A DNA stretch of 36,698 nt from a virus. Of this stretch, positions 1 through 36,698 are shown piece after piece. Position numbers and translations under genes: made by a program. Numbering within the stretch: position 1 is the first letter of the stretch; each line of letters opens with the position of its first letter. Location: the IMG/VR virus record IMGVR_UViG_3300031566_000180, positions 1 to 36,698 of that record, one strand, 5' to 3'. The notes under the pieces were generated by a model. The model made no database searches, was not told the origin of the DNA, and worked only from the letters and a program-made list of their open reading frames with translations.

Positions 1-505
1 TATCCCACACTTTGTGGGCATTCGCGACCGCGCGATCCAAAACTGTGTCGATGAGCTCGCCCCAACCGCTCTCCGCGTAGCCTCTCGCAATTCCAGCGAG
101 ATAGCTGCTCGGCGGCGGGCGCAATGCGATCTTCTTGTTTCGCATCACATAGACGAGCATGCGCTTGATGGTTCCCTCTTGGCGAACGCGCAGCCACTCC
201 TTGACGTACAGGCGCGGCGCTCCCTCATAGATGTCCAAGATCCGCTCGCACTCTGGAGTGATGGACCAGATCGCGCCGTAAGCATACTCGCCTTCCGCCG
301 CGTCTATGTCCGCAAGCCCGCCGCGGAATACCAGCTTGGTATCCGGCAGCGCGTTCCTTTGGACGAAGCGAGCTCGCGGGCAGCGATCCGCCATCTGCGA
401 ATGATCCATGTTGGAGCCATAGGAAAAGTACAGCGTGCGCGGCTGCTCTTGCTGCGGCTGCTTTCGCTTCCGCTTATGCACGCGCTTGCGCTTACGATTC
501 GTCAT
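1..505 (-). CDS. Gamma-glutamylcyclotransferase-like protein (GGCT/AIG2 family), cut by the window edge
   Basis: This gene is open at the left edge, with 168 codons visible from ATG at 505. After a Lys/Arg-rich tail (residues 2-20) the protein shows LYFSYGSNM at 25-33, the substrate-loop YGSN signature of the GGCT/AIG2 fold. It then has GAIWSIT at 77-83 and DIYEGAP at 91-97, whose Glu94 sits where family members carry the catalytic acid. The family cleaves gamma-glutamyl amides, releasing 5-oxoproline. A good ribosome site (GGAG, 7 nt away) precedes the ATG, which overlaps the upstream gene by 14 bases. If the window is circular, the frame continues from 36698 to a TAA at 36652-36654, giving 183 aa, a normal family length. 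Family call is firm; the phage substrate is unknown. Confidence 0.85.
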   Translation of the reverse strand, partial: MTNRKRKRVHKRKRKQPQQEQPRTLYFSYGSNMDHSQMADRCPRARFVQRNALPDTKLVFRGGLADIDAAEGEYAYGAIWSITPECERILDIYEGAPRLYVKEWLRVRQEGTIKRMLVYVMRNKKIALRPPPSSYLAGIARGYAESGWGELIDTVLDRAVANAHKVWD

Positions 506-740
506 GCAGCTTCTCCAACAGGCCCGCCTTGACGAGCGCGTCAACAAAGCTCCTGAAGTTTTCACTGATGCCCTGCGGTCGCGCAAACCAGTCAAGTTCC
601 GCGCGGTCTGAGACGTCATCCATGAAGTCTTCCAAGCTGTTCAGCGGATCAAGCGCTCCCTTGCGGAGCAGCTCAATGATTTCCTTGTGAGTTTCGGCAG
701 CTAGAATCTGCCCGTCTGACTTGTCAACATAGTTCAGCAT
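492..740 (-). CDS. Small acidic helical protein between amidoligase and GGCT
   Basis: 82 aa, not recognised by name. The sequence is acidic and mostly predicted helical, with SLEDFMDDVSDRAEL near residues 35-49 and a hydrophobic C-terminal helix. It has a strong ribosome site (AAGGAG, 6-7 nt before ATG at 740). It lies 23 bases downstream of the amidoligase stop and overlaps the GGCT start by 14 bases, so the three genes look co-translated. By position it could be a partner or protein substrate of the amidoligase, but that is inference from neighbourhood only. No membrane segment or signal peptide is visible. Confidence 0.75.
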   Translation of the reverse strand: MLNYVDKSDGQILAAETHKEIIELLRKGALDPLNSLEDFMDDVSDRAELDWFARPQGISENFRSFVDALVKAGLLEKLHDES

Positions 741-763
741 GGTCTTCTCCTTGGTCTTGAAAG

Positions 764-1837
764 TTAAGCGGAGCGGCGGGCGCCGTCCGCAGCGAAGTGC
801 GAAGTTCGCATCTTGAAAAAGCTAGCAACGTCCGCGGTGCAGCCGCTCCACTCCAGAAGATCAGTCAGCGTGCCTGTCGCGGGCAACGCCTTCATCGCGG
901 TCGCCGCGTCCATCATGGAGAGGAGCAGCTTAACCCAATTGCTGATCTTGCCCCACTCAGTCGTTCCACTGTGATGGCGGACTTCAATCGTTCCATGAAC
1001 GGCGAAGCTGCGGGGGTTGACTGTCCAATACCGGCCAGCGTGCGAGCTCAGAAGATTGCGACATGCTGCTCGCGTGCTGAAAGTCTGTCCGCGAAGCGCG
1101 CTGTTGATGGGGTGCGCGTACTGATTGTTATGGCGGCTGCGCGGCATGAATCCGTTGATCGCCTCTTCAAAGAGTGCGTAGGCTGCGAAAAACCGGCAGT
1201 AGCTCTGCTCACTCATCTCGCGCGCGTCCAAGTGGACATGCAAACCGCAGCTTGCGTTGATAGTCGCGCCGCCGTTGGTCGTTGCTTCGCAAACCTTATA
1301 AAGCTGCGCGAAGCCCTGTTCGCCGCTCAGCTTGGGGCTAACCACTTCGCTGCCGCCGTACACGCTAGCGTCCGTCACGATCTTCCAATGGTCTCGCAGC
1401 GAATGATTGTAGCCTTCAACCGCTGCGGGAATGCCGCTGCCGGTTATGGCGGTCTGCATTCGCGAGCGATCGCCAATCAATTCAAGCTCAACGCCAAAGG
1501 CGCGACCTTCAGTGCTCAACTCAGGGAAGAGGCGCGCGATCGCTGCCGTCTGCGTCTGAGCAGCGGCGGAGCGGCGGGGGCGCGACACAGTGCGACGCGA
1601 AGTGCGAATCCCGCTCAGCGTCATGACCGCGGGCTGGTCTGCATAGATAAAGCGGATATTCCAAGAGCGGCGGCAACTTGTGCACGTGCGGCGCGAGATC
1701 CCAAGGCCTGAAAGATAGAGGGGGTATCCGCATTCGCAGCGGACGCGGAACGCGTTCTGCTCATGCCCGCGGCCATCGCGGCGGATAACCGGCGCGCTGC
1801 GCTCGTAACCGCGCTCGCTGTTGGTGGGTGCCGGCAT
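764..1837 (-). CDS. Amidoligase (Amidoligase_2 superfamily) with N-terminal zinc ribbon
   Basis: 357 aa. An N-terminal zinc ribbon is visible (C34-x-C36 and C52-x2-C55). The catalytic region starts with FGVELEL at 114-120, followed by VTDAS at 154-158, GGSEVVSP at 161-168, CGLHVHLD at 197-204 and GTIEVRHHSGT at 282-292. This is the pattern of the ATP-dependent COOH-NH2 ligases related to glutamine synthetase, in which the E-x-E, the EVVSP Glu, the histidines and the final E-x-R bind metal and ATP. Members form amide or isopeptide bonds. The start is supported by AAGGAG 8 nt upstream. It is the first gene of the leftward block, followed by the 82-aa gene and the GGCT. Family call is firm; substrate unknown. 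The zinc ribbon may recruit a partner. Confidence 0.85.
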   Translation of the reverse strand: MPAPTNSERGYERSAPVIRRDGRGHEQNAFRVRCECGYPLYLSGLGISRRTCTSCRRSWNIRFIYADQPAVMTLSGIRTSRRTVSRPRRSAAAQTQTAAIARLFPELSTEGRAFGVELELIGDRSRMQTAITGSGIPAAVEGYNHSLRDHWKIVTDASVYGGSEVVSPKLSGEQGFAQLYKVCEATTNGGATINASCGLHVHLDAREMSEQSYCRFFAAYALFEEAINGFMPRSRHNNQYAHPINSALRGQTFSTRAACRNLLSSHAGRYWTVNPRSFAVHGTIEVRHHSGTTEWGKISNWVKLLLSMMDAATAMKALPATGTLTDLLEWSGCTADVASFFKMRTSHFAADGARRSA

Positions 1838-1879
1838 CTTTTCTCTCCTTAGACTCGCTGCTCAACTAGAAGCGTACCA

Positions 1880-8695: not shown

Positions 8696-11218
8696 ATGAA
8701 CTCCAAAAAGATTAGCAAGGAACTACTGCGTCGAATCAACTTGACTGACGCTATCGATGACTTGGTTGAAGGCGCGTCCACCGGCGATAACGTCTGCTGC
8801 CCTTTCCCTGAGCGCCATGAGTCCGGCAACGACAGCACTCCATCGTTTGGAGTAGACCCTGACAACGCCGGCCGCTCGTTCTGCCAAGGCTGCGGCTATA
8901 AGTCGTCGACGATAGTTGGGCTAGCGCAAGACTTGCTAGGCCTGTCGTATCGCAACGCAATTAAGCATCTCTGGACTGAGCATGTCGAGAAGCTAGTCCC
9001 CGACTCCAATGTATCGCATGCTCATGGAGCGCTCGCGAATAATCCGCTCTTGATTGGACGACTCAAGAAAAAGCGCGGTATTTCTGAAGCTGCCGTGTTG
9101 CGGCATAGGCTAGGCTGGGCTGGCGATCGCCTTTGGATTCCAATTGAGAACGAGCAAGGCCTTGTCGTCGACGTTCGCAAGCACGATCTACTGGGTCGCA
9201 GAAAAGCAGGCGCGCCCAAGATCTTCAGCTATGGCAAGAAGGGCGATGGCTTTGGAGGCGCGCGGATCTATCCGTTGAGCTCGCTCAAGCGCAGCGTGGT
9301 CGTGCTCTGCGAAGGCGAGCTAGACGCGATCCTAGCTATCGACCGCGGGATCAACGCCGTGACCATTACGAGCGGCGCGCACACGATGCCCGCTGAGCTT
9401 GCGAAGAAGTTCAAAGGCTTGAAGGTTCTAGTCGTGCCGGACAACGATAAGGCTGGATTGGCGGGCGCACGCAAGCGAGCCAAGGCCTTAACCAAAGCAG
9501 GCGCGCGAGTGATTCTGCTTGACCCCCCGCCTTGGCCGAAAGGCAAAGACTTGGGCGATTGGCTGCATGGCGGCGGCGGCAATGCTGAGCTGCTGAGACA
9601 AGCAGCGTCAGGCGTTGGCGAAGAAGAGGCTAAGCCCGTCGCGTCCGTTGCGTTGGAGTTCGAGACTTCAGAAGCTGAAAACGAAATGGTCGAGCGCGCG
9701 GAGCTGGTTCTGTCGCTGCTTGAATCACGCGGTGGATTCTTTCGCGGCAACGACGGCGAATCCTACTACGCGGAGCGAGCGGGCAGTGGATCAATGGCTG
9801 TCGGCGGCGCTCACTTCCTTGGGCATCTGTCGCGAATCAATCCTGCAATCAATTCAGCAACGTCGTCCGGTCGCTTCGTTATCAACCACTTGAAGTCAGC
9901 TGCGCTAGGGCGCGCAAGCAAAGTCACGATGGGCGCTTGGTCGCTCTATCATAACCAAAGCGTTTACCTCTACGCGGGCAAGGGCCGAACGCTTTGCGCG
10001 ACGCCGAAGTCGGTCACGATGCTGGACGACTCAGTGCAGACGCACTCAGTGCTGATTGATACGCCGCGCGAGCATGCTGCGGTTAAGTGGATCAAGTCCG
10101 CGCAGCCAAACGAAGCTGTTGCTGCGGCGTGGTCCATCGTTGGTAGGAATATCGCTTGCGACGATTCGTACCGCTATCTCTCGATGTGTTGGATCATGAG
10201 CCTGTACTTCAGGGAGTATATTCGGGCGAAGCCAATCCTTCGATTCGTTGCGAGCAGCGGCGGCGGCAAGACCACTGCGACCAAGTTGATTTCGCACTTG
10301 ATCTATGGCGAAGAAGTCATGTCGCACTCCGCGAGCACGATCGCAAGTAGCTACGCGATGGCTCAGTCGCACCCAATCCTTTTGTTTGATAACGTCGAGA
10401 CTCGCAACCTAACGCAGCCGTTTGAAGACTTCCTGCTGACCGCTGCGACCGGCGGATCAAAGACGAAGCGCGCGTCAGGAACTGACAGCGCCATCGTAAC
10501 GGAGCAAGTCAACTGCTTGATTGGGACCAACGGTATCGAGCCCTTCTCCAGAAACGAACTGATCGCGCGGACCATTGAGATTGAGCTTGACCTCGAGAAG
10601 TATGGCCGCGCGAACTTCCATGAGTACCGAGAAGTCAAGCGAGCATCAGAGCAGCGCCATCAGATTCTATCAGGCTGGTTGAAGCTCGCGCAGCAATCCA
10701 TCCTACCGCGAATCAAGAGCGGCGAAGTTTCAAGGATCGCGCACGAATTCCCGCACCATTCAATGGAACGCTTCAACGACCATTGGGCGCTGATGGCGAT
10801 CTGCTCAGATATCTGCTTCGCGTTCAGACCGTCAAACAAGTGGAACACCGCTCGCGATTTGGTAAGTGAATGGCTGGAAGAGCAAGACCGCAGCGCGTCA
10901 GAACGCAAGCAATCAACGAGCGAGCTGCTCTACTATCTGGAGACGCTAGTCGATCGGCATGGATCGCTAAGCGATACGCGCGTCAAGATTACTGAGCGCG
11001 ATGGCAAGACCTACCTACGCGCGCAAGCCAACCAGCTCTTGACAGACTTTCAGATCCTTGCAAAGCATCTCGGTCAGCGCTGTCCTTGGAGCAATGCTAG
11101 ACAGCTTGGAGTCCGCCTTGTTGACGCGGAGTCTATGCTTTCCAATGCAGGTTGGACGCGATCAAAGAAGATGGTTTCAGGCCGCATGCTCACAGTTCTG
11201 ACCAAGGAGAAGAGATGA
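8696..11218 (+). CDS. Primase-helicase: CHC2-type zinc finger, TOPRIM and P-loop helicase domains
   Basis: 840 aa. The zinc finger uses C35/H41 and C63/C66 (CCPFPERH and SFCQGCGYKS), as in DnaG-type primases. The TOPRIM domain shows VVVLCEGELDA at 201-211 (Glu206) and LVVPDNDKAG at 245-254 (Asp248, Asp250). The C-terminal half carries ASSGGGKT at 519-526 (Walker A), ILLFDNVETR at 561-570 (Walker B) and LIGTNGIEPFSRNELIARTI near 608-627 (sensor/arginine finger). It therefore joins primer synthesis and DNA unwinding in one chain. It follows the hairpin at 8611-8669 and overlaps the kinase gene by 4 bases. Confidence 0.88.
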   Translation: MNSKKISKELLRRINLTDAIDDLVEGASTGDNVCCPFPERHESGNDSTPSFGVDPDNAGRSFCQGCGYKSSTIVGLAQDLLGLSYRNAIKHLWTEHVEKLVPDSNVSHAHGALANNPLLIGRLKKKRGISEAAVLRHRLGWAGDRLWIPIENEQGLVVDVRKHDLLGRRKAGAPKIFSYGKKGDGFGGARIYPLSSLKRSVVVLCEGELDAILAIDRGINAVTITSGAHTMPAELAKKFKGLKVLVVPDNDKAGLAGARKRAKALTKAGARVILLDPPPWPKGKDLGDWLHGGGGNAELLRQAASGVGEEEAKPVASVALEFETSEAENEMVERAELVLSLLESRGGFFRGNDGESYYAERAGSGSMAVGGAHFLGHLSRINPAINSATSSGRFVINHLKSAALGRASKVTMGAWSLYHNQSVYLYAGKGRTLCATPKSVTMLDDSVQTHSVLIDTPREHAAVKWIKSAQPNEAVAAAWSIVGRNIACDDSYRYLSMCWIMSLYFREYIRAKPILRFVASSGGGKTTATKLISHLIYGEEVMSHSASTIASSYAMAQSHPILLFDNVETRNLTQPFEDFLLTAATGGSKTKRASGTDSAIVTEQVNCLIGTNGIEPFSRNELIARTIEIELDLEKYGRANFHEYREVKRASEQRHQILSGWLKLAQQSILPRIKSGEVSRIAHEFPHHSMERFNDHWALMAICSDICFAFRPSNKWNTARDLVSEWLEEQDRSASERKQSTSELLYYLETLVDRHGSLSDTRVKITERDGKTYLRAQANQLLTDFQILAKHLGQRCPWSNARQLGVRLVDAESMLSNAGWTRSKKMVSGRMLTVLTKEKR

Positions 11219-11820
11219 ACTTCAGAGCTCGATCTATTATCGCATTCGAAGGCCCTGATGGGGTTGGGAAGACGACGCTGCTTAATCAAGTCGCGGTAGA
11301 GCTTCTGCGGCAGGGCGTTCCTGTTACTGTGGTTGATTACAGAGCATCAGAGACGGGCCGCGCCGCGTATGATCTCGCGCGCGACCACGACGGCAACGAA
11401 ATGACCCGCCGCTATCTGATGGCTGCGGCAGCGGAAGAGGCGCTTGAACTGGTCTATAGCAAGTGGAACGAGTCGCTGATTCTGCTTGATCGACTGCACC
11501 CCGTTAGCGACTGGTGCTACGGCAGCGCATCGGCTGAACTCGCAGCGCATACGGATCGTTGGATTGGGCTTACCGAAACTCAGCATTGGCCGCTGGTCGA
11601 TCTGCTATTCGTTCTGAGGTATCGCCATCGCAAGCCAACGCATGCGCTCGAGCGAAGAGACGTCGACAAGTTCTACGCAAACACGAATCAGCTTAGGTTG
11701 CTTTCTGGCGCGGAAGGGCTTGATATTCTAACGGTTAATAAGCCTGCCGACGAAGGCGTTCTAGTCGCTGAAGTTATCAAAGTGATGATTGAAGAAACGC
11801 TGATAGAGGTGTCAGAATGA
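11215..11820 (+). CDS. Thymidylate kinase-like deoxynucleoside monophosphate kinase
   Basis: 201 aa from ATG 11215, preceded by AAGGAG and overlapping the primase-helicase stop in ATGA. IIAFEGPDGVGKTTLL at 8-23 is the P-loop of the dTMP kinase family, and LLDRLHPVSDWCYG carries the conserved DR motif that binds the nucleotide. The usual reaction is dNMP + ATP to dNDP. It is followed directly by a ThyA-superfamily gene whose product probably supplies its substrate; if that product is a modified dCMP, this kinase may be tuned to it. Exact specificity cannot be read from the sequence. Confidence 0.8.
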   Translation: MNFRARSIIAFEGPDGVGKTTLLNQVAVELLRQGVPVTVVDYRASETGRAAYDLARDHDGNEMTRRYLMAAAAEEALELVYSKWNESLILLDRLHPVSDWCYGSASAELAAHTDRWIGLTETQHWPLVDLLFVLRYRHRKPTHALERRDVDKFYANTNQLRLLSGAEGLDILTVNKPADEGVLVAEVIKVMIEETLIEVSE

Positions 11821-12659
11821 ATACCGCGTTTGATGGAGTCTATGTCGAGCTACTCGACTTCGTGCTCGCAGCAAAAGAGGAGCAAGACCAACGGACCGGC
11901 ATCTACTACCGCGCGCGTCCCGGCCTTTCGTTTAGCTGCGGCCATGGCGGCGGACTGCCGCTCGTCTCGCTGCGGAACATCAACACCAAGTGGTTCTGCG
12001 CCGAAGCGGTTTGGCATATGAGCGGCGGCCGCGATCCCGACTTCATGAAGACCTACGGCTTCAACGCTTGGAGTAAATTCCCGCAGTCGATGAATTGGGG
12101 TCCGACATTTCGCGGCCGCGGCGATGGCATTGACTTGCTGCTTAAGGGCGTCGCTGCGCTACGACATGATCGCACCAAGAAGTCCATCGTCTTCCAGCTC
12201 TTCGAGCGCGACGACATTGGCCGTTCGCATCGGCCTTGCATCTCGTCCATGGCGCTTTCGGTTATCGGTGAAACGCTGCATACGACGGTGCTCCAACGAA
12301 GCGCTGACCTCTACTTCGGACTTCCGCATGACGTCGCCGGCATCGCGATCATCCGCGCTTGGATCGCTCGCTATCTCAACTTGAAGATCGGCGCGATCTA
12401 TTGGACGGTGGCCAACGCGCACGTCTACGCCAATCAGTACTTTGCAGCTCACGCGATGGTCGAGAAGTTTTCAACTCGAACTGGTATCGCGTCAGCTGAT
12501 TCTATAGTTCCGTCTTGCACGGCAGAATGGAAGCGCGCGATCCAAGGCGAGCCAACGCTAGTATTTGATTTGCATCGCGTAGTCGAGGCTGACTATCTGA
12601 AGTTCAATCCACCCAAGTCTCATAGGGGGATTGCAATCATAGGGGGCGTGAATGATTAG
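11817..12659 (+). CDS. Thymidylate synthase superfamily enzyme with the Asn-to-Asp change of dCMP-specific relatives
   Basis: 280 aa. A gapless alignment by spacing to E. coli ThyA places Cys141 at catalytic Cys146 (HRPC), Gln160-Arg161-Ser162-x-Asp164 at QRS-x-D, and His202-x-Tyr204 at HxY. The position of Asn177 (PFNIA), which recognises dUMP, is Asp172 here (PHDVA). Asp at this site is known from T4 dCMP hydroxymethylase, and the Asn-to-Asp mutant of thymidylate synthase accepts dCMP. Arg126-Arg127 are replaced by Lys121-Lys122, and the residue after the catalytic Cys is Ile rather than His. The enzyme is thus divergent and may act on dCMP. Neighbours are a dNMP kinase and a DHFR-like reductase. 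Confidence 0.75.
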   Translation: MNTAFDGVYVELLDFVLAAKEEQDQRTGIYYRARPGLSFSCGHGGGLPLVSLRNINTKWFCAEAVWHMSGGRDPDFMKTYGFNAWSKFPQSMNWGPTFRGRGDGIDLLLKGVAALRHDRTKKSIVFQLFERDDIGRSHRPCISSMALSVIGETLHTTVLQRSADLYFGLPHDVAGIAIIRAWIARYLNLKIGAIYWTVANAHVYANQYFAAHAMVEKFSTRTGIASADSIVPSCTAEWKRAIQGEPTLVFDLHRVVEADYLKFNPPKSHRGIAIIGGVND

Positions 12660-13149
12660 CGCAAGTATAGTGGTTAGCTTGGATGGACGAATTGGAAAGC
12701 CGAATAGCATTGAGCACGGCGGCTGGACGAGCAGCGAAGACAAGGCTAAGTTCTGGAAGCTGGTTAAGCAGTCGCAGCTCTCAATCGTCGGCGCGAATAC
12801 TTGGAACGGCTTCTCTGCGTCAACAAAGACTCGCTTGGTCGCCAACTCCAGGGTCTTGCTCTACTCCGGCCGTAACAGCACGCACTCCGAGGATCTTCTA
12901 AAGCATGCGCTCAGTTGCAGCGTGGACGAAGAGGTTCTGATCTTGGGCGGCGCGAAGACGTTCTACTTCTTCCGCCATGTTATTCACTGCTGGAACATTA
13001 CGACTGAGCCTGTTCTGTTGGCGTCGGGGCCGTCGCTCTTTCCGTTGCTTGCAGACGACAAGAACCGCATTCCAGTCTTCCTGCAGATCGAGCGGCTTAA
13101 GCAACTGAACGCAGAAGGGACTATCCATGCGGTGTATACGAAACGATAA
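12652..13149 (+). CDS. Dihydrofolate reductase-like protein (DHFR/RibD C-terminal fold)
   Basis: 165 aa. It begins MISASIVVSLDGRIG, the first strand and loop of the DHFR/RibD-C fold, followed by LSIVGANTWNGF at 43-54 and VLILGGAKTFYFF at 94-106, the NADPH-binding glycine motif. It overlaps the ThyA-like gene by 8 bases. Thymidylate-type methylation oxidises methylene-tetrahydrofolate to dihydrofolate, which DHFR recycles, so the pairing suggests the neighbour is a reductive methylase rather than a hydroxymethylase. It is shorter on motifs than classical DHFR, so another pteridine or pyrimidine reductase is possible. Confidence 0.65.
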   Translation: MISASIVVSLDGRIGKPNSIEHGGWTSSEDKAKFWKLVKQSQLSIVGANTWNGFSASTKTRLVANSRVLLYSGRNSTHSEDLLKHALSCSVDEEVLILGGAKTFYFFRHVIHCWNITTEPVLLASGPSLFPLLADDKNRIPVFLQIERLKQLNAEGTIHAVYTKR

Positions 13150-13342
13150 GTCTAAGCCTACCTTTGCGCTAGTTCAAGCTCCCGCGCAGCTAATACGAAT
13201 CGAGCTGCGGCCGTGCAAAGTATGCTTTGAAGTCATGACGATCTCCTCTCGCATTCCTGGCGGGCGTCGACGACAGTCGAAGTACTGCAGCAACGCGTGC
13301 AATCAGAAGGCCAAGCGAATGAGAGCAAAGGAAACACGATGA
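13127..13342 (+). CDS. Small zinc-finger protein
   Basis: 71 aa from ATG 13127, with AAGGGA about 7 nt upstream and a 23-base overlap with the reductase gene. The C-terminal half has RPCKVCFEVM and SKYCSNACNQKAKRMR, a CxxC...CxxxC knuckle followed by a basic helix. This is a common small phage nucleic-acid-binding module. It ends in ATGA with the deaminase gene. Specific role unknown. Confidence 0.65.
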   Translation: MRCIRNDKSKPTFALVQAPAQLIRIELRPCKVCFEVMTISSRIPGGRRRQSKYCSNACNQKAKRMRAKETR

Positions 13343-13848
13343 ATGACGAAGCGCAAACCTATCTCCAGTTCAACGAAGGCTCAATAGGTCAAGTGCAGAT
13401 TCTTCGACGCCTCTCTAGCTTCGGCAGCCACGTTGATCGCATGCAACGCTTCGCCGCTGAAGTCGCGAGCTGGAGCAACTGTCCCATCGGTCGAAAGCAT
13501 GCCTGCATTCTAACGCTCGAGGGGAAGTACATCATCTCGACCGGCTATAACGGGACTGCGACCAAAGAGCCGGAGTGCGTTTGCGAAGGCAAGCGCAAGG
13601 GCTGGTGCATGGAGAACTGCGTCGCCGTTCATGCGGAAGTTAACGCGCTCGCGAACGCTGCGCGCATCGGCGTTTCAGTACTCGATTCGATAGCGTACGT
13701 GACCAAAGCGCCCTGCCTGCCGTGCCGCGCGGCGCTAAAGAACAGCGGAGTCCATGTGATAATCTGGGACCAAGCCAATGACTCGCTCAGCGTACCTAGA
13801 GACTCGTTCGAAGCTCTCGAAGACTTCGGGTTCTACGCGCGTGGCTGA
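13339..13848 (+). CDS. Deoxycytidylate (dCMP) deaminase
   Basis: 169 aa from ATG 13339, which overlaps the previous stop in ATGA and has AAAGGA upstream. The catalytic zinc site is clear: HAEVNAL with His98 and Glu100, and APCLPC with Cys126 and Cys129. Extra cysteines (CVCEGKRKGWCMENC) probably bind a second zinc, as in T4 dCMP deaminase. The reaction is dCMP to dUMP, feeding dTMP synthesis. Having it beside a ThyA-like enzyme that may itself use dCMP is noteworthy: the two could compete for dCMP or act on different derivatives. Confidence 0.85.
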   Translation: MNDEAQTYLQFNEGSIGQVQILRRLSSFGSHVDRMQRFAAEVASWSNCPIGRKHACILTLEGKYIISTGYNGTATKEPECVCEGKRKGWCMENCVAVHAEVNALANAARIGVSVLDSIAYVTKAPCLPCRAALKNSGVHVIIWDQANDSLSVPRDSFEALEDFGFYARG

Positions 13849-32612: not shown

Positions 32613-34738
32613 CACTTCTTCTCCTCAACCGGCGTAACAAAACACCGGCAATTGATTGAGTTGCTCGCAGAGAGAGAACTGCCGCCTTCGCCGATGCCGG
32701 GCGCGTCGGCTCGCTCGCCGTCAGTCAGAGTGAACGACTCATCAAGGTCAACGACTTGGCCGTCGATCAGATGCGAGTCGCGAACGTCTGCATCCAAACT
32801 GGTATTCCATTGCTTTCGAGCTACGCCGCTCTGTTCAAAGCCTGCGAGCTGGCCTGTCTGCGTAGCTTTCAGAACTTCAGTGCGTGCAATCGTGCGAGCT
32901 TGCTGGCGTCGAACATCGAACACCCGACGGATGCGGGTAGCGAGCTGACCAACGCCTTCGCCTGCCGAGTTACCGGTAGCAAGCTCGCGAGCGATAGCCT
33001 TCTGTGTCGTACGATTCGCGTTGGTAATCAGTGCGCCCGCTTGCTTTCGTAGCTGCGCGGTGACCTTCGTGTTGAATATGAACTCCAGATCATCGCTGAT
33101 ACCTGCGATCGCTTCGCTTCCAGCTGCGTTGGTAGCGGATCGGCGAATCGGCTCGACGCGTGCGTTGAAGATTTTGTCCCATGCCTCGTCGTCAAAGATC
33201 TCGTCAGCGGTCACTCGCGAGCGCGGCTTAGTCGCTTCCAGCTTCTTGAGCGTTTCGTTCTTCTGAAGTAGGAAGATCTTCCGCATCTCACGCGTGAACG
33301 CAGGTACAAACGTCCGCTCTGCGTTGACTTGACGCTCCCACGCACGAGCCTTGCTGAAGTAGGACTCTGCTGCTCGCATGCGATCGCCGTCGTCGTCTTT
33401 ATCCAACTCAAGATCAACTTCGTCGTCGTCGACTTCAGGATCTGAGATTGCACCGGGATCGTCAGCGGGCAGTAGCTCATCCTCGATCTCAGGCTCGTAC
33501 CAGGTCTCGCCAACCTTCGCAGGCGGTCGATCGCCCCACGGAACAGGATCTTCGCCGCGCGCTTCAAGAATCATGTTAGGCGAGCGAACTTTATTGGTGA
33601 TGTCCGCGGTCTCTTGCGCCAACTCGAATGCCTTGTCGTCCGACACGAACTTCTCGAACTTGACGAAGAGTGCGGGATCAAAGTCCGGTGCGAGCTGCAA
33701 CGTGAGCGCGTCTTCAATCATCGTTGAAATCGGCAGAATCGTATGACGATCGAAGACATACTGGTTGGTTTCAGCGCTTGAACGATCGCCGCTGACTACC
33801 ATGCCAAGGATAGACTTCGGAACGCCAAAGTCCATGAGCTGCATGTTGGACCAGTACTCAAGCAGCGGAGTGATGTCCGCGCCGCTCTCCATCGCCATTT
33901 GGATGAGCTTGTAGTGCGTGGGCAGAATGACCGGCAATCCATCGCTCGTTCCCACCCGATTGTTGTATCGCTTGCGCCAACGGGTAAGGAACGATTCCTT
34001 TTCGTCCTTCGTGAACGGCTGCGCTTGCTCGCCTGCTTCAAGCGCAGTCTTGGGCGTGGCGTTGTTCATGTAGTGCTCGCGCATCGTCTGACCGGCGAAC
34101 TTCAGAGAGTCGGCTGTCACTGCGGACGGGGCGAGATATCCCTCTGCATTCCAAGGATCTTCAGGATCAGCGTAGAAGAATCGGATGAATTCGTTTGCGT
34201 CGACTGCGCGTTGGCCGCCATCACCGTCTGTCACCCAGTATGCGACGATGATATTCTGTTCGATGATCGGCTCCATCAACCAAGGCGGAACGGGGTGGAG
34301 CTCAACCGGAATGCCAAGGCCCGAGCCAACCTTCTGCCAATAGGCTTCGCCGCACGTGACGACGTACTGACCGACCAATCGCAGCATCTGAGCTCTCGAA
34401 TAGTTCGGATGCGGGCGATCAAGTAGCATTTTCAGCGGGTTGTCGTCAATGATCTCGTCAATGACCGTTCCCTTGCGATCGCGACGGCTGACCATCACTT
34501 GCGGGTTGAGCATGCTTAGCCGATTGGCAATCGCACGCGTCGCAGTATCGGCTACGCCTTTGGACTCGCGTAGCAGCGTCTTCGTATTGGGCTGGTTTCC
34601 AAGGCCTGTTCCGAACCGATCGGTGCGGCTATGGTACGGAATCGCTGCAATCGCCCGAGCAAAGCCTTCTTCAAACGCGAGTGCCTGCGCTGCTTGAGCT
34701 GCTTTGCTAGGTCCGCGAAGCCGATCCAATAGCGCCAT
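32612..34738 (-). CDS. Portal protein fused to a MuF-type minor head protein
   Basis: 708 aa. Residues 60-400 match phage portal proteins (TATRAIANRLSMLNPQ, LLDRPHPNYSRAQMLRLVGQ, MQLMDFGVPKSILGMVV, SAETNQYVFDRHTI). A strongly acidic linker (414-455) joins a helical region to a C-terminal MuF domain (600-705). That domain has IARTEVLKATQTGQLAGFEQ, DADVRDSHLIDGQVVDLDE and the closing NCRCFVTPV with the paired cysteines. Portal forms the DNA entry ring; MuF proteins are minor head proteins, often injected or used in assembly. No separate MuF gene was found, so this fusion appears to supply both. It shares one base with each neighbour (TGATG). Confidence 0.85.
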   Translation of the reverse strand: MALLDRLRGPSKAAQAAQALAFEEGFARAIAAIPYHSRTDRFGTGLGNQPNTKTLLRESKGVADTATRAIANRLSMLNPQVMVSRRDRKGTVIDEIIDDNPLKMLLDRPHPNYSRAQMLRLVGQYVVTCGEAYWQKVGSGLGIPVELHPVPPWLMEPIIEQNIIVAYWVTDGDGGQRAVDANEFIRFFYADPEDPWNAEGYLAPSAVTADSLKFAGQTMREHYMNNATPKTALEAGEQAQPFTKDEKESFLTRWRKRYNNRVGTSDGLPVILPTHYKLIQMAMESGADITPLLEYWSNMQLMDFGVPKSILGMVVSGDRSSAETNQYVFDRHTILPISTMIEDALTLQLAPDFDPALFVKFEKFVSDDKAFELAQETADITNKVRSPNMILEARGEDPVPWGDRPPAKVGETWYEPEIEDELLPADDPGAISDPEVDDDEVDLELDKDDDGDRMRAAESYFSKARAWERQVNAERTFVPAFTREMRKIFLLQKNETLKKLEATKPRSRVTADEIFDDEAWDKIFNARVEPIRRSATNAAGSEAIAGISDDLEFIFNTKVTAQLRKQAGALITNANRTTQKAIARELATGNSAGEGVGQLATRIRRVFDVRRQQARTIARTEVLKATQTGQLAGFEQSGVARKQWNTSLDADVRDSHLIDGQVVDLDESFTLTDGERADAPGIGEGGSSLSASNSINCRCFVTPVEEKK

Positions 34739-36129
34739 CAGGCCGCCTCCTCTTCTTCGTCATCATCGCCGTACAGATCCGACGGCGACAGTCCAGTGTT
34801 TCGAACGAGCAGGTTCGTCAGCGACCAAACGCACGCGTCGCCGCGGTCGGGACTGCCCGATCCTTCCCAACCTGAATCCGTGAAGCCGGTCATGTCGTCT
34901 TCAAGGTGGGGAAAGTTTCCGCAGTACTTGACGCGGCCCTGTTCGTGCAGCGCTGCAATCGGCTGCGCTCGAACATGCTTGCCACGCGATGCGGTGACCT
35001 TGACGAATCGCGGGCGCGGGACTCCCATCTTGTCTGCGGCTGCATGGATTACGTGCTGCACCATGTCGCCGCCATAGTTCACCTCCGCTACGACGCGATC
35101 GGCTTGCAGCGTGTAGTAGAGCTGGACGACTGCGCGCCCCCAACCGTCAGGCCCTGCATGGGTCGACTTGTCAGTGATTACGTAGCCGACCTTGCCAATC
35201 TTCCCGCAGGCGATGATTCCCTTAGCGTCTCCGGTTTCGGTACCAGACGGGTCGACTCCAACGCATATGCTGTCATAGTCGCCGAGCTTGGGTCGCAGCT
35301 TAGCTTCAAGGCGGTTGTCGGCGATCATGTCAAGGGTAATGAGCGCGCCTTCAACGTCTTCGAGCAGAATGCCTTCAATCTCCTGACGACCAAGTCGCGT
35401 GCCCCCGTACTCAGTCTCCACCGCGCGGATGAACTTCGCGCTGAGATTCGCAGCGTTCTCCTGCATCGCGCCCTGAGACACTACGCAATCGCCGCGTTTG
35501 AGCAGCTTCGCAACCAATCGTCCACGCTTTGGAGTAGAGGTCGCGACGATTCGAGGATCGCTCCCAAGTCGGATACCAAATTCGAAGAGCGCCAACGCTT
35601 CGGCCGGCTTCATACGGTTCGGCGCCCAAGAGTCGATCTCGTCAATCCAGGCCCCCTCGGCTTGCGTACCGCGGAATCGCTCAGCCTCCTTGGCTGCGCG
35701 CAGTCGAATGACCGCACCGTTCCAGCAAAGCAGATGGGGATTCGCACTGGAGAGCTTTAGAACTGGTCGCTTGTGAGGCGGCCAGATATCGAGAAGGCCG
35801 GGAGCGCTGGGACTTCCGTTGACTTGGGTATCCATGACGTCCATCCATGTAGGCCCAGCAACGTTGACCGTTCGCCACTCACCGCGGTCAATACGCCCGC
35901 GAATATATTCCGCGGCGGTGCGGGTCTTGCCCCAACCTCTCCCGGCCTGAATGAGCCAATAGAACCATTCGCCGTCCGGCGGTAGCTGCTTTGGTCGCGC
36001 CCACCTACTCCAGGTTTTGAGCTCGTCCCAAAGCGCCATCCGTGCCGGCGTCGAGAGCTGATGCGCGATCGCACGCTGCTCAACCTCTGGCAATAAGAGC
36101 AGCGAGCTCACTAGCGAGTCGGTCTGCAT
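34738..36129 (-). CDS. Terminase large subunit
   Basis: 463 aa from ATG 36129, where GAGG lies 9 bases upstream; an in-frame ATG at 36138 has GAGG too close. Numbers below use the longer form. The ATPase has AGRGWGKT at 65-72 (Walker A), GAWIDEID at 162-169 (Walker B) and VATSTP at 198-203 (coupling motif). The RNase H-like nuclease has VGVDPSGT (Asp296), VAEVNYGGDM (Glu352) and SPDRGDACVW (Asp431 or Asp434). It drives DNA into the prohead and cuts the concatemer. The N-terminus overlaps the small subunit gene by 50 bases; the C-terminus is acidic. Confidence 0.92.
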   Translation of the reverse strand: MQTDSLVSSLLLLPEVEQRAIAHQLSTPARMALWDELKTWSRWARPKQLPPDGEWFYWLIQAGRGWGKTRTAAEYIRGRIDRGEWRTVNVAGPTWMDVMDTQVNGSPSAPGLLDIWPPHKRPVLKLSSANPHLLCWNGAVIRLRAAKEAERFRGTQAEGAWIDEIDSWAPNRMKPAEALALFEFGIRLGSDPRIVATSTPKRGRLVAKLLKRGDCVVSQGAMQENAANLSAKFIRAVETEYGGTRLGRQEIEGILLEDVEGALITLDMIADNRLEAKLRPKLGDYDSICVGVDPSGTETGDAKGIIACGKIGKVGYVITDKSTHAGPDGWGRAVVQLYYTLQADRVVAEVNYGGDMVQHVIHAAADKMGVPRPRFVKVTASRGKHVRAQPIAALHEQGRVKYCGNFPHLEDDMTGFTDSGWEGSGSPDRGDACVWSLTNLLVRNTGLSPSDLYGDDDEEEEAA

Positions 36130-36565
36130 CCGGCTCATCCTCGTGGATATGCTTTTCGATCTTGGGGAGGATCCGCTCGAGTACGCGCTCCAATGCCCAA
36201 CGATCTTTGTTCTGAGCCATGGTCATGATGATCTCAAGGATCTCTTCGCTGACCGTGCCTTTGCGCTTGTCACCGCGAGCCGACTGGAGAATGCGAGCAA
36301 ACGTCTGCTCTGCATCGCGTCGGTAGGTGTACTGATTGAGACCGCGCGGATTGCGAACTTCCCCGATCTGAATGCTATGCGCGAAGAATCCAGGGTTGTT
36401 GGTCCTAGCCGCTTTAGCTCGCGCTGCATCGGACGGAACGTGCTTGACCTTTGCGGGCTTCTTCCGCTTGCGGGCTTGCGTGCCGCGGGCGGGCTTGAGC
36501 TGCTCCGCCTTGGCCCGAGCCTTGAGGCGCACGCTCTTCTTGGAGCTCTTCTTTTTGACGGCCAT
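36080..36565 (-). CDS. Terminase small subunit-like protein
   Basis: 161 aa from ATG 36565 (MAVKKKSSKK...). An in-frame TTG at 36601 has a slightly better ribosome site, so the start is uncertain. The N-terminal 55 residues are Lys/Arg-rich and should bind DNA. IQIGEVRNPRGLNQYTYRRD and the following helices (ILEIIMTMAQNKDRWALERV, ILPKIEKHI) resemble small terminase or DUF5681-like packaging proteins. It lies immediately before and overlaps the large subunit gene. It probably recognises the packaging site and recruits the large subunit. Call rests on both position and composition. Confidence 0.7.
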   Translation of the reverse strand: MAVKKKSSKKSVRLKARAKAEQLKPARGTQARKRKKPAKVKHVPSDAARAKAARTNNPGFFAHSIQIGEVRNPRGLNQYTYRRDAEQTFARILQSARGDKRKGTVSEEILEIIMTMAQNKDRWALERVLERILPKIEKHIHEDEPDADRLASELAALIARG

Positions 36566-36698
36566 TAGACGCAAGCTGTCGGTTAGCGCTGCAAGCTGCA
36601 ACAGCCTGCTAGCAAACTGGCCCGCGCTCGAGAGCTAACCCCTTGATTTCATTAGCTTTTGTGGATTACAGGCGCGCCTGGTCGAGCCAGGCCCTGGG
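36566..36698. other. Region before terminase and possible circular junction
   Basis: About 130 bases with no complete gene. On the minus strand 36698-36652 read as 15 codons and a TAA in the frame of the gamma-glutamylcyclotransferase gene that leaves the window at base 1, which fits a circular map. It contains the 12-bp palindrome CAGGCGCGCCTG (36669-36680) and a GCCTGG/CCAGGC hairpin (36676-36692). No clear promoter was seen. A packaging site could lie here by analogy with other phages. Confidence 0.5.

What the first reader, a model, noticed from the sequence alone, without database searches (positions are those of the whole stretch)
1..1837. Amidoligase - small protein - gamma-glutamylcyclotransferase cassette
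A ligase able to form amide or isopeptide bonds and an enzyme able to break gamma-glutamyl amides are encoded as a make-and-undo pair, with an 82-aa acidic protein between them. Coupling (23-base gap, 14-base overlap) and good ribosome sites show they are one unit. Amidoligases of this superfamily were predicted by comparative genomics (Iyer, Aravind and co-workers) to make peptides or modify proteins or cell wall, and phage links to AIG2/GGCT genes are known in outline. The fused zinc ribbon and the 82-aa protein as possible target are less described. Candidate roles: envelope or virion protein modification, superinfection exclusion, or a small gamma-glutamyl metabolite.
Basis: partly seen in the sequence, partly recalled or inferred. 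Interest (0 to 1): 0.8.

Follow-up and report, generated by a model that had tools for sequence, protein, structure and literature searches.

The report
Phage amidoligase cassette with small partner

Summary
On the minus strand lie an Amidoligase_2 enzyme (1837-764), an 82-aa acidic protein (740-492) and a gamma-glutamylcyclotransferase (GGCT, 505 to beyond the window edge). A second IMG/VR contig completes the GGCT (189 aa) and places the cassette upstream of the terminase genes. In reverse, 22 of 22 testable loci found from the small protein have the ligase just upstream. Order ligase-small-GGCT holds in 24 of 27 loci with all three genes. Catalytic residues are conserved in both enzymes. 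The small family has no Pfam, PHROGs, NCBIfam or PDB match. Its confident fold prediction and lack of any conserved lysine or C-terminus argue against a Pup-like tag and for an accessory subunit. The zinc ribbon is peculiar to this phage; many relatives carry a helix-turn-helix there. Phage amidoligase-GGCT modules are already known and predicted to modify cell walls, so this is a new variant of a known kind. Best reading: a gamma-glutamyl-amide make-and-undo cassette with unknown target.

The parts
764..1837 (-). Amidoligase_2 (glutamine-synthetase-fold carboxylate-amine ligase), 357 aa
   Evidence: PF12224 E 1.5e-25, phrog_2443 E 3.1e-38; AlphaFold2 core matches glutamine synthetases and YbdK, VIA Z about 13; invariant E117, E119, H200, H202, E285, R287
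914..1507 (-). catalytic core of the ligase (residues 111-308)
   Evidence: Pfam envelope; pLDDT mostly above 90
1673..1738 (-). possible zinc ribbon, CxC-x15-CxxC, residues 34-55, peculiar to this phage
   Evidence: sequence; the first cysteine pair is in no other locus of the alignment, and the region is modelled with low confidence
   Evidence: relatives in 103 of 150 loci; reciprocal 22/22; AlphaFold2 pLDDT 84.7
1..505 (-). gamma-glutamylcyclotransferase, first 168 of 189 codons (gene runs off the window; completed in L011)
   Evidence: PF06094 E 5.3e-10, phrog_2520 E 1.3e-21; closest solved structure human GGCT; catalytic Glu94 conserved
1845..1850 (-). Shine-Dalgarno-like AAGGAG of the ligase gene
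747..752 (-). Shine-Dalgarno-like AAGGAG of the small gene
513..516 (-). Shine-Dalgarno-like GGAG of the GGCT gene
34738..36601 (-). terminase small (candidate, by position only) and large subunit genes; in the joined map they lie downstream of the cassette on the same strand
   Evidence: Terminase_6N/6C match for 34738-36138; L011 reads from GGCT through about 2.5 kb into these genes; the small-subunit candidate itself has no Pfam hit

Best explanation
The three genes form a phage gamma-glutamyl-amide cassette. The ligase (glutamine-synthetase fold) would use ATP to activate a carboxylate, most likely the gamma-carboxyl of glutamate, and join it to an amine on a target. The 82-aa protein is a dedicated folded accessory subunit or adaptor of the ligase, not its covalent substrate. 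The GGCT would remove the same mark by cyclising the glutamyl group to 5-oxoproline, making the modification reversible or transient. Shown: gene order, conservation, folds by prediction, catalytic residues. Inferred: the chemistry, the reversal, and the role of the small protein. Unknown: the target.
For: Gene unit and conserved order: 24 of 27 loci with all three genes read ligase-small-GGCT on one strand. Ligase residues expected of a working glutamine-synthetase-type site are invariant: E117, E119, H200, H202, N274, E285, R287. The predicted fold matches glutamine synthetases and the gamma-glutamylcysteine-ligase-like YbdK. GGCT Glu94 is kept in all 54 relatives that cover it and aligns with the Glu of human GGCT. 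An unrelated enzyme type that can also cleave gamma-glutamyl amides, a class II glutamine-amidotransferase-like hydrolase with N-terminal Cys, stands beside the ligase in 10 loci, never together with GGCT or small protein in this sample. Adaptor rather than substrate: confident fold, no conserved Lys, Cys or C-terminus, strict linkage to the ligase.
Against: No activity or binding is shown for any of the three proteins. The ligase's carboxylate donor is assumed from the superfamily; other members use other donors. GGCT is missing from 98 of the 150 loci, so reversal is not universal. In Hymenobacter-family genomes a small-family domain with a C-terminal extension stands without a ligase (L182, L183, L185), which a pure ligase subunit would not predict. 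No ligase-small complex was modelled, because only single chains can be folded here.
Confidence: 0.45

Rival explanations
1. Envelope modification and superinfection exclusion: the ligase attaches an unusual peptide or amino acid to cytoplasmic peptidoglycan precursors, so that competing phages no longer infect; GGCT trims the same peptides.
For: This is the standing prediction for the amidoligase/GGCT modules of phiEco32, LUZ24-like and RIO-1-like phages (PMC5498523; PMC11945000; PMC11253131). Related ligases occur in genomes of many bacterial phyla, nearly all of which have peptidoglycan.
Against: The window phage shows no homologue of the class II GATase seen beside other amidoligases (six-frame HMM search), and the proteins tested against Pfam show no ATP-grasp or second ligase of that module. 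phiEco32's ligase and GGCT are distant from these, and the phiEco32 and LUZ24-like loci lack the small protein. The prediction has not, to my knowledge, been tested.
Confidence: 0.2
2. The target is nucleic acid or a DNA-bound protein: the ligase is brought to it by its variable N-terminal domain and decorates a base or a protein near it.
For: About 46 relatives carry a helix-turn-helix-like N-terminal module with consistent sub-threshold Pfam HTH matches; others carry cysteine-rich modules, and the window a CxC..CxxC. Marine relatives sit beside ParB-like, PAPS-reductase-like and methyltransferase-like genes, named here from their sequences, and Heliusvirales cassettes beside ParB or DNA methyltransferase and TerS.
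Against: No known DNA modification uses an Amidoligase_2 enzyme to my knowledge. HTH modules can serve regulation or protein contact. The HTH matches do not pass Pfam cut-offs.
Confidence: 0.17
3. The small protein is the substrate: a Pup-like or carrier-like protein that is joined to targets or carries the gamma-glutamyl group while GGCT removes it.
For: Size, acidity and strict pairing with a glutamine-synthetase-fold ligase recall Pup/PafA; the make-and-remove logic recalls BtrJ/BtrG in butirosin synthesis (general knowledge). A small-family domain also stands without a ligase in three Hymenobacter-family loci.
Against: The C-terminus varies in length and residue; no lysine or cysteine is conserved; the model is folded with pLDDT 84.7. 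Two clades use the ligase without it.
Confidence: 0.1
4. Auxiliary metabolism: ligase and GGCT help the infected host assimilate nitrogen or turn over glutathione.
For: Proposed for phage-ZRK32, which carries amidoligase, GATase, glutathione synthase and GGCT (PMC10945688). GGCT alone acts on gamma-glutamyl dipeptides in other organisms (general knowledge).
Against: It gives no role to the strictly linked small protein, and in P. gingivalis phages the ligase-small pair sits inside the structural gene module.
Confidence: 0.06

Closest known systems
phiEco32 / LUZ24 / RIO-1 'peptidoglycan modification module' (predicted by Iyer et al. 2009, extended by Hardies et al. 2013, both read here only through citing papers)
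   Same: phage-encoded Amidoligase_2 enzyme with a GGCT in the same cluster
   Different: that module also has a COOH-NH2 ligase, an ATP-grasp enzyme and a glutamine amidotransferase, its ligase and GGCT are distant, and it lacks the small protein
Amidoligase-GGCT pairs of Clostridia prophages (Terrisporobacter TPDSL_ph1, C. clostridioforme, Ca. Heliusvirales)
   Same: ligase then GGCT, in the Heliusvirales upstream of the terminase genes as here
   Different: ligases of another subfamily; no small-family protein detected; the Monoglobales phage has two GGCT-like genes
P. gingivalis phage amidoligase locus (e.g. PP754931, XAW31964.1-XAW31965.1)
   Same: ligase followed directly by a small-family protein annotated only as hypothetical
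   Different: no GGCT; inside the structural module between portal and tape measure; helix-turn-helix-like N-terminus
EgtA/EgtC, BtrJ/BtrG and PafA/Pup (general knowledge)
   Same: ligase of amide bonds at glutamate paired with a remover or a small protein
   Different: unrelated operons; here no metabolite, carrier protein or disordered tag is identified

Membership tests
Amidoligase_2 (PF12224) | profile match above the curated cut-off | tested here: met
   91 bits against cut-off 22
Amidoligase_2 (PF12224) | glutamine-synthetase-like fold with acidic metal site and E-x-R motif | tested here: met
   Foldseek E about 1e-4 and VIA Z about 13 to glutamine synthetases and YbdK; residues invariant
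Amidoligase_2 (PF12224) | ATP-dependent amide bond formation | not testable with these tools
   no assay
Gamma-glutamylcyclotransferase (PF06094) | profile match and YGSN motif with catalytic glutamate | tested here: met
   40.3 bits against 22.8; Glu94 in 54 of 54 relatives covering it, YGSN in most
Gamma-glutamylcyclotransferase (PF06094) | release of 5-oxoproline | not testable with these tools
   no assay
phiEco32-type peptidoglycan modification module | amidoligase and GGCT in one cluster | tested here: met
phiEco32-type peptidoglycan modification module | accompanying ATP-grasp, COOH-NH2 ligase and class II GATase | tested here: not met
   no GATase by HMM over the six frames of window and L011; no ATP-grasp or second ligase among 23 proteins given to Pfam; not every frame was scanned with Pfam
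Pup/PafA-like tagging | disordered tag with conserved C-terminal Gly-Gly-Glu/Gln | tested here: not met
   folded model; C-terminus not conserved in 70 members
any known small-protein family | match of the 82-aa family in Pfam, PHROGs or NCBIfam | tested here: not met
   no significant hit for the window protein or for ten relatives (eight in NCBIfam)
known solved folds for the small protein | structural match in the PDB | tested here: inconclusive
   best Foldseek E 0.85, best VIA Z 3.3; only uncharacterised viral proteins of 79-86 aa match well in BFVD

The most novel reading that the evidence does not exclude
The small protein is itself the object of the chemistry: a new phage-encoded reversible gamma-glutamylation system in which the ligase charges or conjugates the small protein and GGCT discharges it, unlike Pup and ubiquitin in fold and attachment.
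Probability: 0.1. Interest if true: 0.85.

Novelty: new variant of a known kind. Interest (0 to 1): 0.5.

Why it matters
Phage amidoligases have been annotated for over fifteen years with a predicted but, as far as I found, untested role. A strictly linked partner that no searched library files gives a concrete handle for biochemistry: co-expression of ligase and small protein is the obvious missing condition in an activity test. If the cassette makes a reversible mark on a host or virion component, it adds a kind of modification to the phage-host conflict.

Tried and rejected
Chance adjacency: rejected by reciprocal and unbiased genome tests. Small protein as a peculiarity of this phage: suggested by first searches that found no relative, overturned by iterated profiles. 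Zinc ribbon as a conserved part: absent in relatives. Pup-like tag: see membership test. Solved structure for the ligase by sequence: none. Small-family proteins in phiEco32 and LUZ24-like loci: none; a weak shortened one in a Bacillus phage (E 1.1e-4). PDB fold for the small protein: nothing usable. Promoters: only chance-level matches. The founding paper (Iyer et al. 2009, PMC3268129) is not held, so whether it mentions the small gene could not be checked; literature searches found no mention. The 21-member alignment of the small family was too variable to scan with, so two closer subsets were used.

Full report
What is there. The window is a linear 36,698-base IMG/VR virus record. On its minus strand three genes follow one another: an Amidoligase_2 protein at 1837-764 (PF12224 E 1.5e-25, phrog_2443 E 3.1e-38), an 82-aa protein at 740-492, and a GGCT protein from 505 that runs off the left edge (PF06094 E 5.3e-10, phrog_2520 E 1.3e-21). 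Contig IMGVR_UViG_3300031673_000385 is identical over 5,505 shared bases and continues past the edge. It completes the GGCT at 189 aa and after about 2.5 kb reaches the terminase genes at the other end of the window. The two records are thus permuted pieces of one phage type, joined length about 39.2 kb; at the far end they differ at 7 of 2,536 bases, all within the last 60 bases of the window. The cassette opens the minus-strand unit that leads on to terminase, portal (PF04860) and capsid (PF05065) genes, opposite to the plus-strand replication genes.

Is the small gene real and linked? First searches with the 82-aa protein found no relative beyond the phage itself. A profile of divergent amidoligases then brought in 80 viral and 70 bacterial-genome loci. 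An iterated profile of the small protein, run over all open frames of these loci, matched in 103 of 150 loci. All 103 matches lie on the ligase strand downstream of it, 100 of them with their stop within 150-700 bases of the ligase stop. GGCT relatives occur in 52 loci. Of 27 loci with all three genes, 24, including the window phage's own, read ligase-small-GGCT; two read ligase-GGCT-small and one has GGCT divergent. Ascertainment should be kept in mind: all 150 loci were found through the ligase.

Two tests avoid that bias. Starting from the small protein, 23 viral loci were found; 22 have the ligase directly upstream, and the last is cut off by the contig end. Among 200 genomes drawn from the family of Hymenobacter norwichensis, all 15 full-length ligases are paired with a small gene; 14 genomes have both, one has only a ligase fragment at a contig end, three have only a small-family match (Fisher p 8.5e-18). 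In a second family (that of Bacteroides faecalis), 201 genomes gave six with a ligase, of which only one has the small gene; the small gene never occurred without a ligase there, apart from one weak 33-residue match inside a 509-aa protein. So the small protein nearly always comes with a ligase, while the ligase can do without it.

What the proteins look like. The ligase model has a well-predicted core that matches glutamine synthetases and the YbdK family (VIA Z about 13 to each). Residues E117, E119, D156, E164, H200, H202, R235, N274, E285, R287, H289 and K297 are the same in every relative that covers them. GGCT keeps Glu94 in all 54 relatives that cover it and is nearest by sequence to human GGCT, whose 'LDEQEG' lines up with 'LDIYEG' here. 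The small protein is modelled with mean pLDDT 84.7 as a beta-hairpin, three helices and a short strand. The most conserved positions across 70 members are Gly10, Met40, Arg46, Phe65, Leu69 and Gly73; no lysine or cysteine is conserved and the C-terminus varies in length and residue. No Pfam, PHROGs or NCBIfam model covers it, no PDB fold matches, and in BFVD its best matches are uncharacterised viral proteins of 79-86 aa. In annotated phages it is 'hypothetical protein', for example XAW31965.1 behind the amidoligase of Porphyromonas phage 019b.

Variants of the cassette. On a ligase tree of 138 sequences the small gene accompanies most clades; at least 11 gains or losses are needed. A marine clade has ligase and GGCT without it. 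Another clade has instead a class II glutamine-amidotransferase-like protein with N-terminal Cys and an HNG motif, never with GGCT or small gene in this sample; the same ligase-GATase pair is annotated in Arthrobacter phage Salgado. In established pathways such enzymes also cleave gamma-glutamyl amides, as EgtC does after EgtA (general knowledge). That two unrelated candidate removers alternate beside the ligase is the best argument that its product is a gamma-glutamyl amide; it is inference. The position of the window ligase on the tree, on a long branch, is unsure (the tool's own warning).

N-termini. About 46 relatives carry a helix-turn-helix-like module in its place, with repeated sub-threshold Pfam HTH matches on one segment; a few have other cysteine-rich modules. 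Interchangeable modules of nucleic-acid-binding type suggest, but do not show, a target at nucleic acid.

Genome position. In Heliusvirales phages ligase and GGCT precede terminase, portal and capsid genes, the same order as here. In P. gingivalis phages ligase and small gene lie between portal and tape-measure genes. In LUZ24-like and phiEco32 phages the module lies among early genes. Position therefore does not fix the target.

Literature. Phage amidoligase-GGCT modules are known and were predicted to modify cell walls and exclude other phages (PMC5498523; PMC11945000; PMC11253131; PMC11318856; PMC10580990); one paper proposes nitrogen metabolism (PMC10945688). Nearly all lean on Iyer et al. 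2009, which is not held here. No paper found describes the small partner.

Verdict. Best reading: reversible gamma-glutamyl-amide modification with the small protein as ligase subunit, confidence 0.45; target unknown. Interest 0.5.

Noticed in passing
L109, L103, L112, L156 and about 40 more ligase loci: Amidoligases of the small-protein clade carry an N-terminal helix-turn-helix-like module (TKTxKxxQLLxLGLTRxQVAxLxxxGYGFVQNVYxK); no Pfam model covers it above cut-off.
   Followed up: partly
L182:1504-1968, L183:1270-1719, L185:1495-1953: Hymenobacter-family genomes hold a small-family domain with a shared C-terminal extension of about 75 aa and no amidoligase nearby; in L183 it is followed by a gene resembling the one that follows the ligase-small pair elsewhere, so the small domain may work without the ligase.
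   Followed up: partly
L150, L146, L149, L154, L091, L147, L036, L062, L152, L155: A class II glutamine-amidotransferase-like gene with N-terminal Cys stands at or next to the position otherwise held by small protein or GGCT beside the amidoligase.
   Followed up: partly
L186:5210-6438: Monoglobales phage CHVD 5762 carries two GGCT-like genes behind its amidoligase; the first is annotated only as hypothetical.
   Followed up: no
window 1-36698 and L011: The window and contig IMGVR_UViG_3300031673_000385 are permuted pieces of one phage type, joined length about 39.2 kb, with seven mismatches clustered in the last 60 bases of the window.
   Followed up: partly
window 11152-13848: A nucleotide-metabolism cluster on the plus strand: thymidylate-kinase-like, thymidylate-synthase family, RibD-like and dCMP-deaminase-like genes; whether the synthase is a hydroxymethylase was not tested.
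   Followed up: no
window 434-505 (minus strand): The GGCT begins with a very basic tail, MTNRKRKRVHKRKRKQ, absent from the three relatives aligned with it.
   Followed up: no
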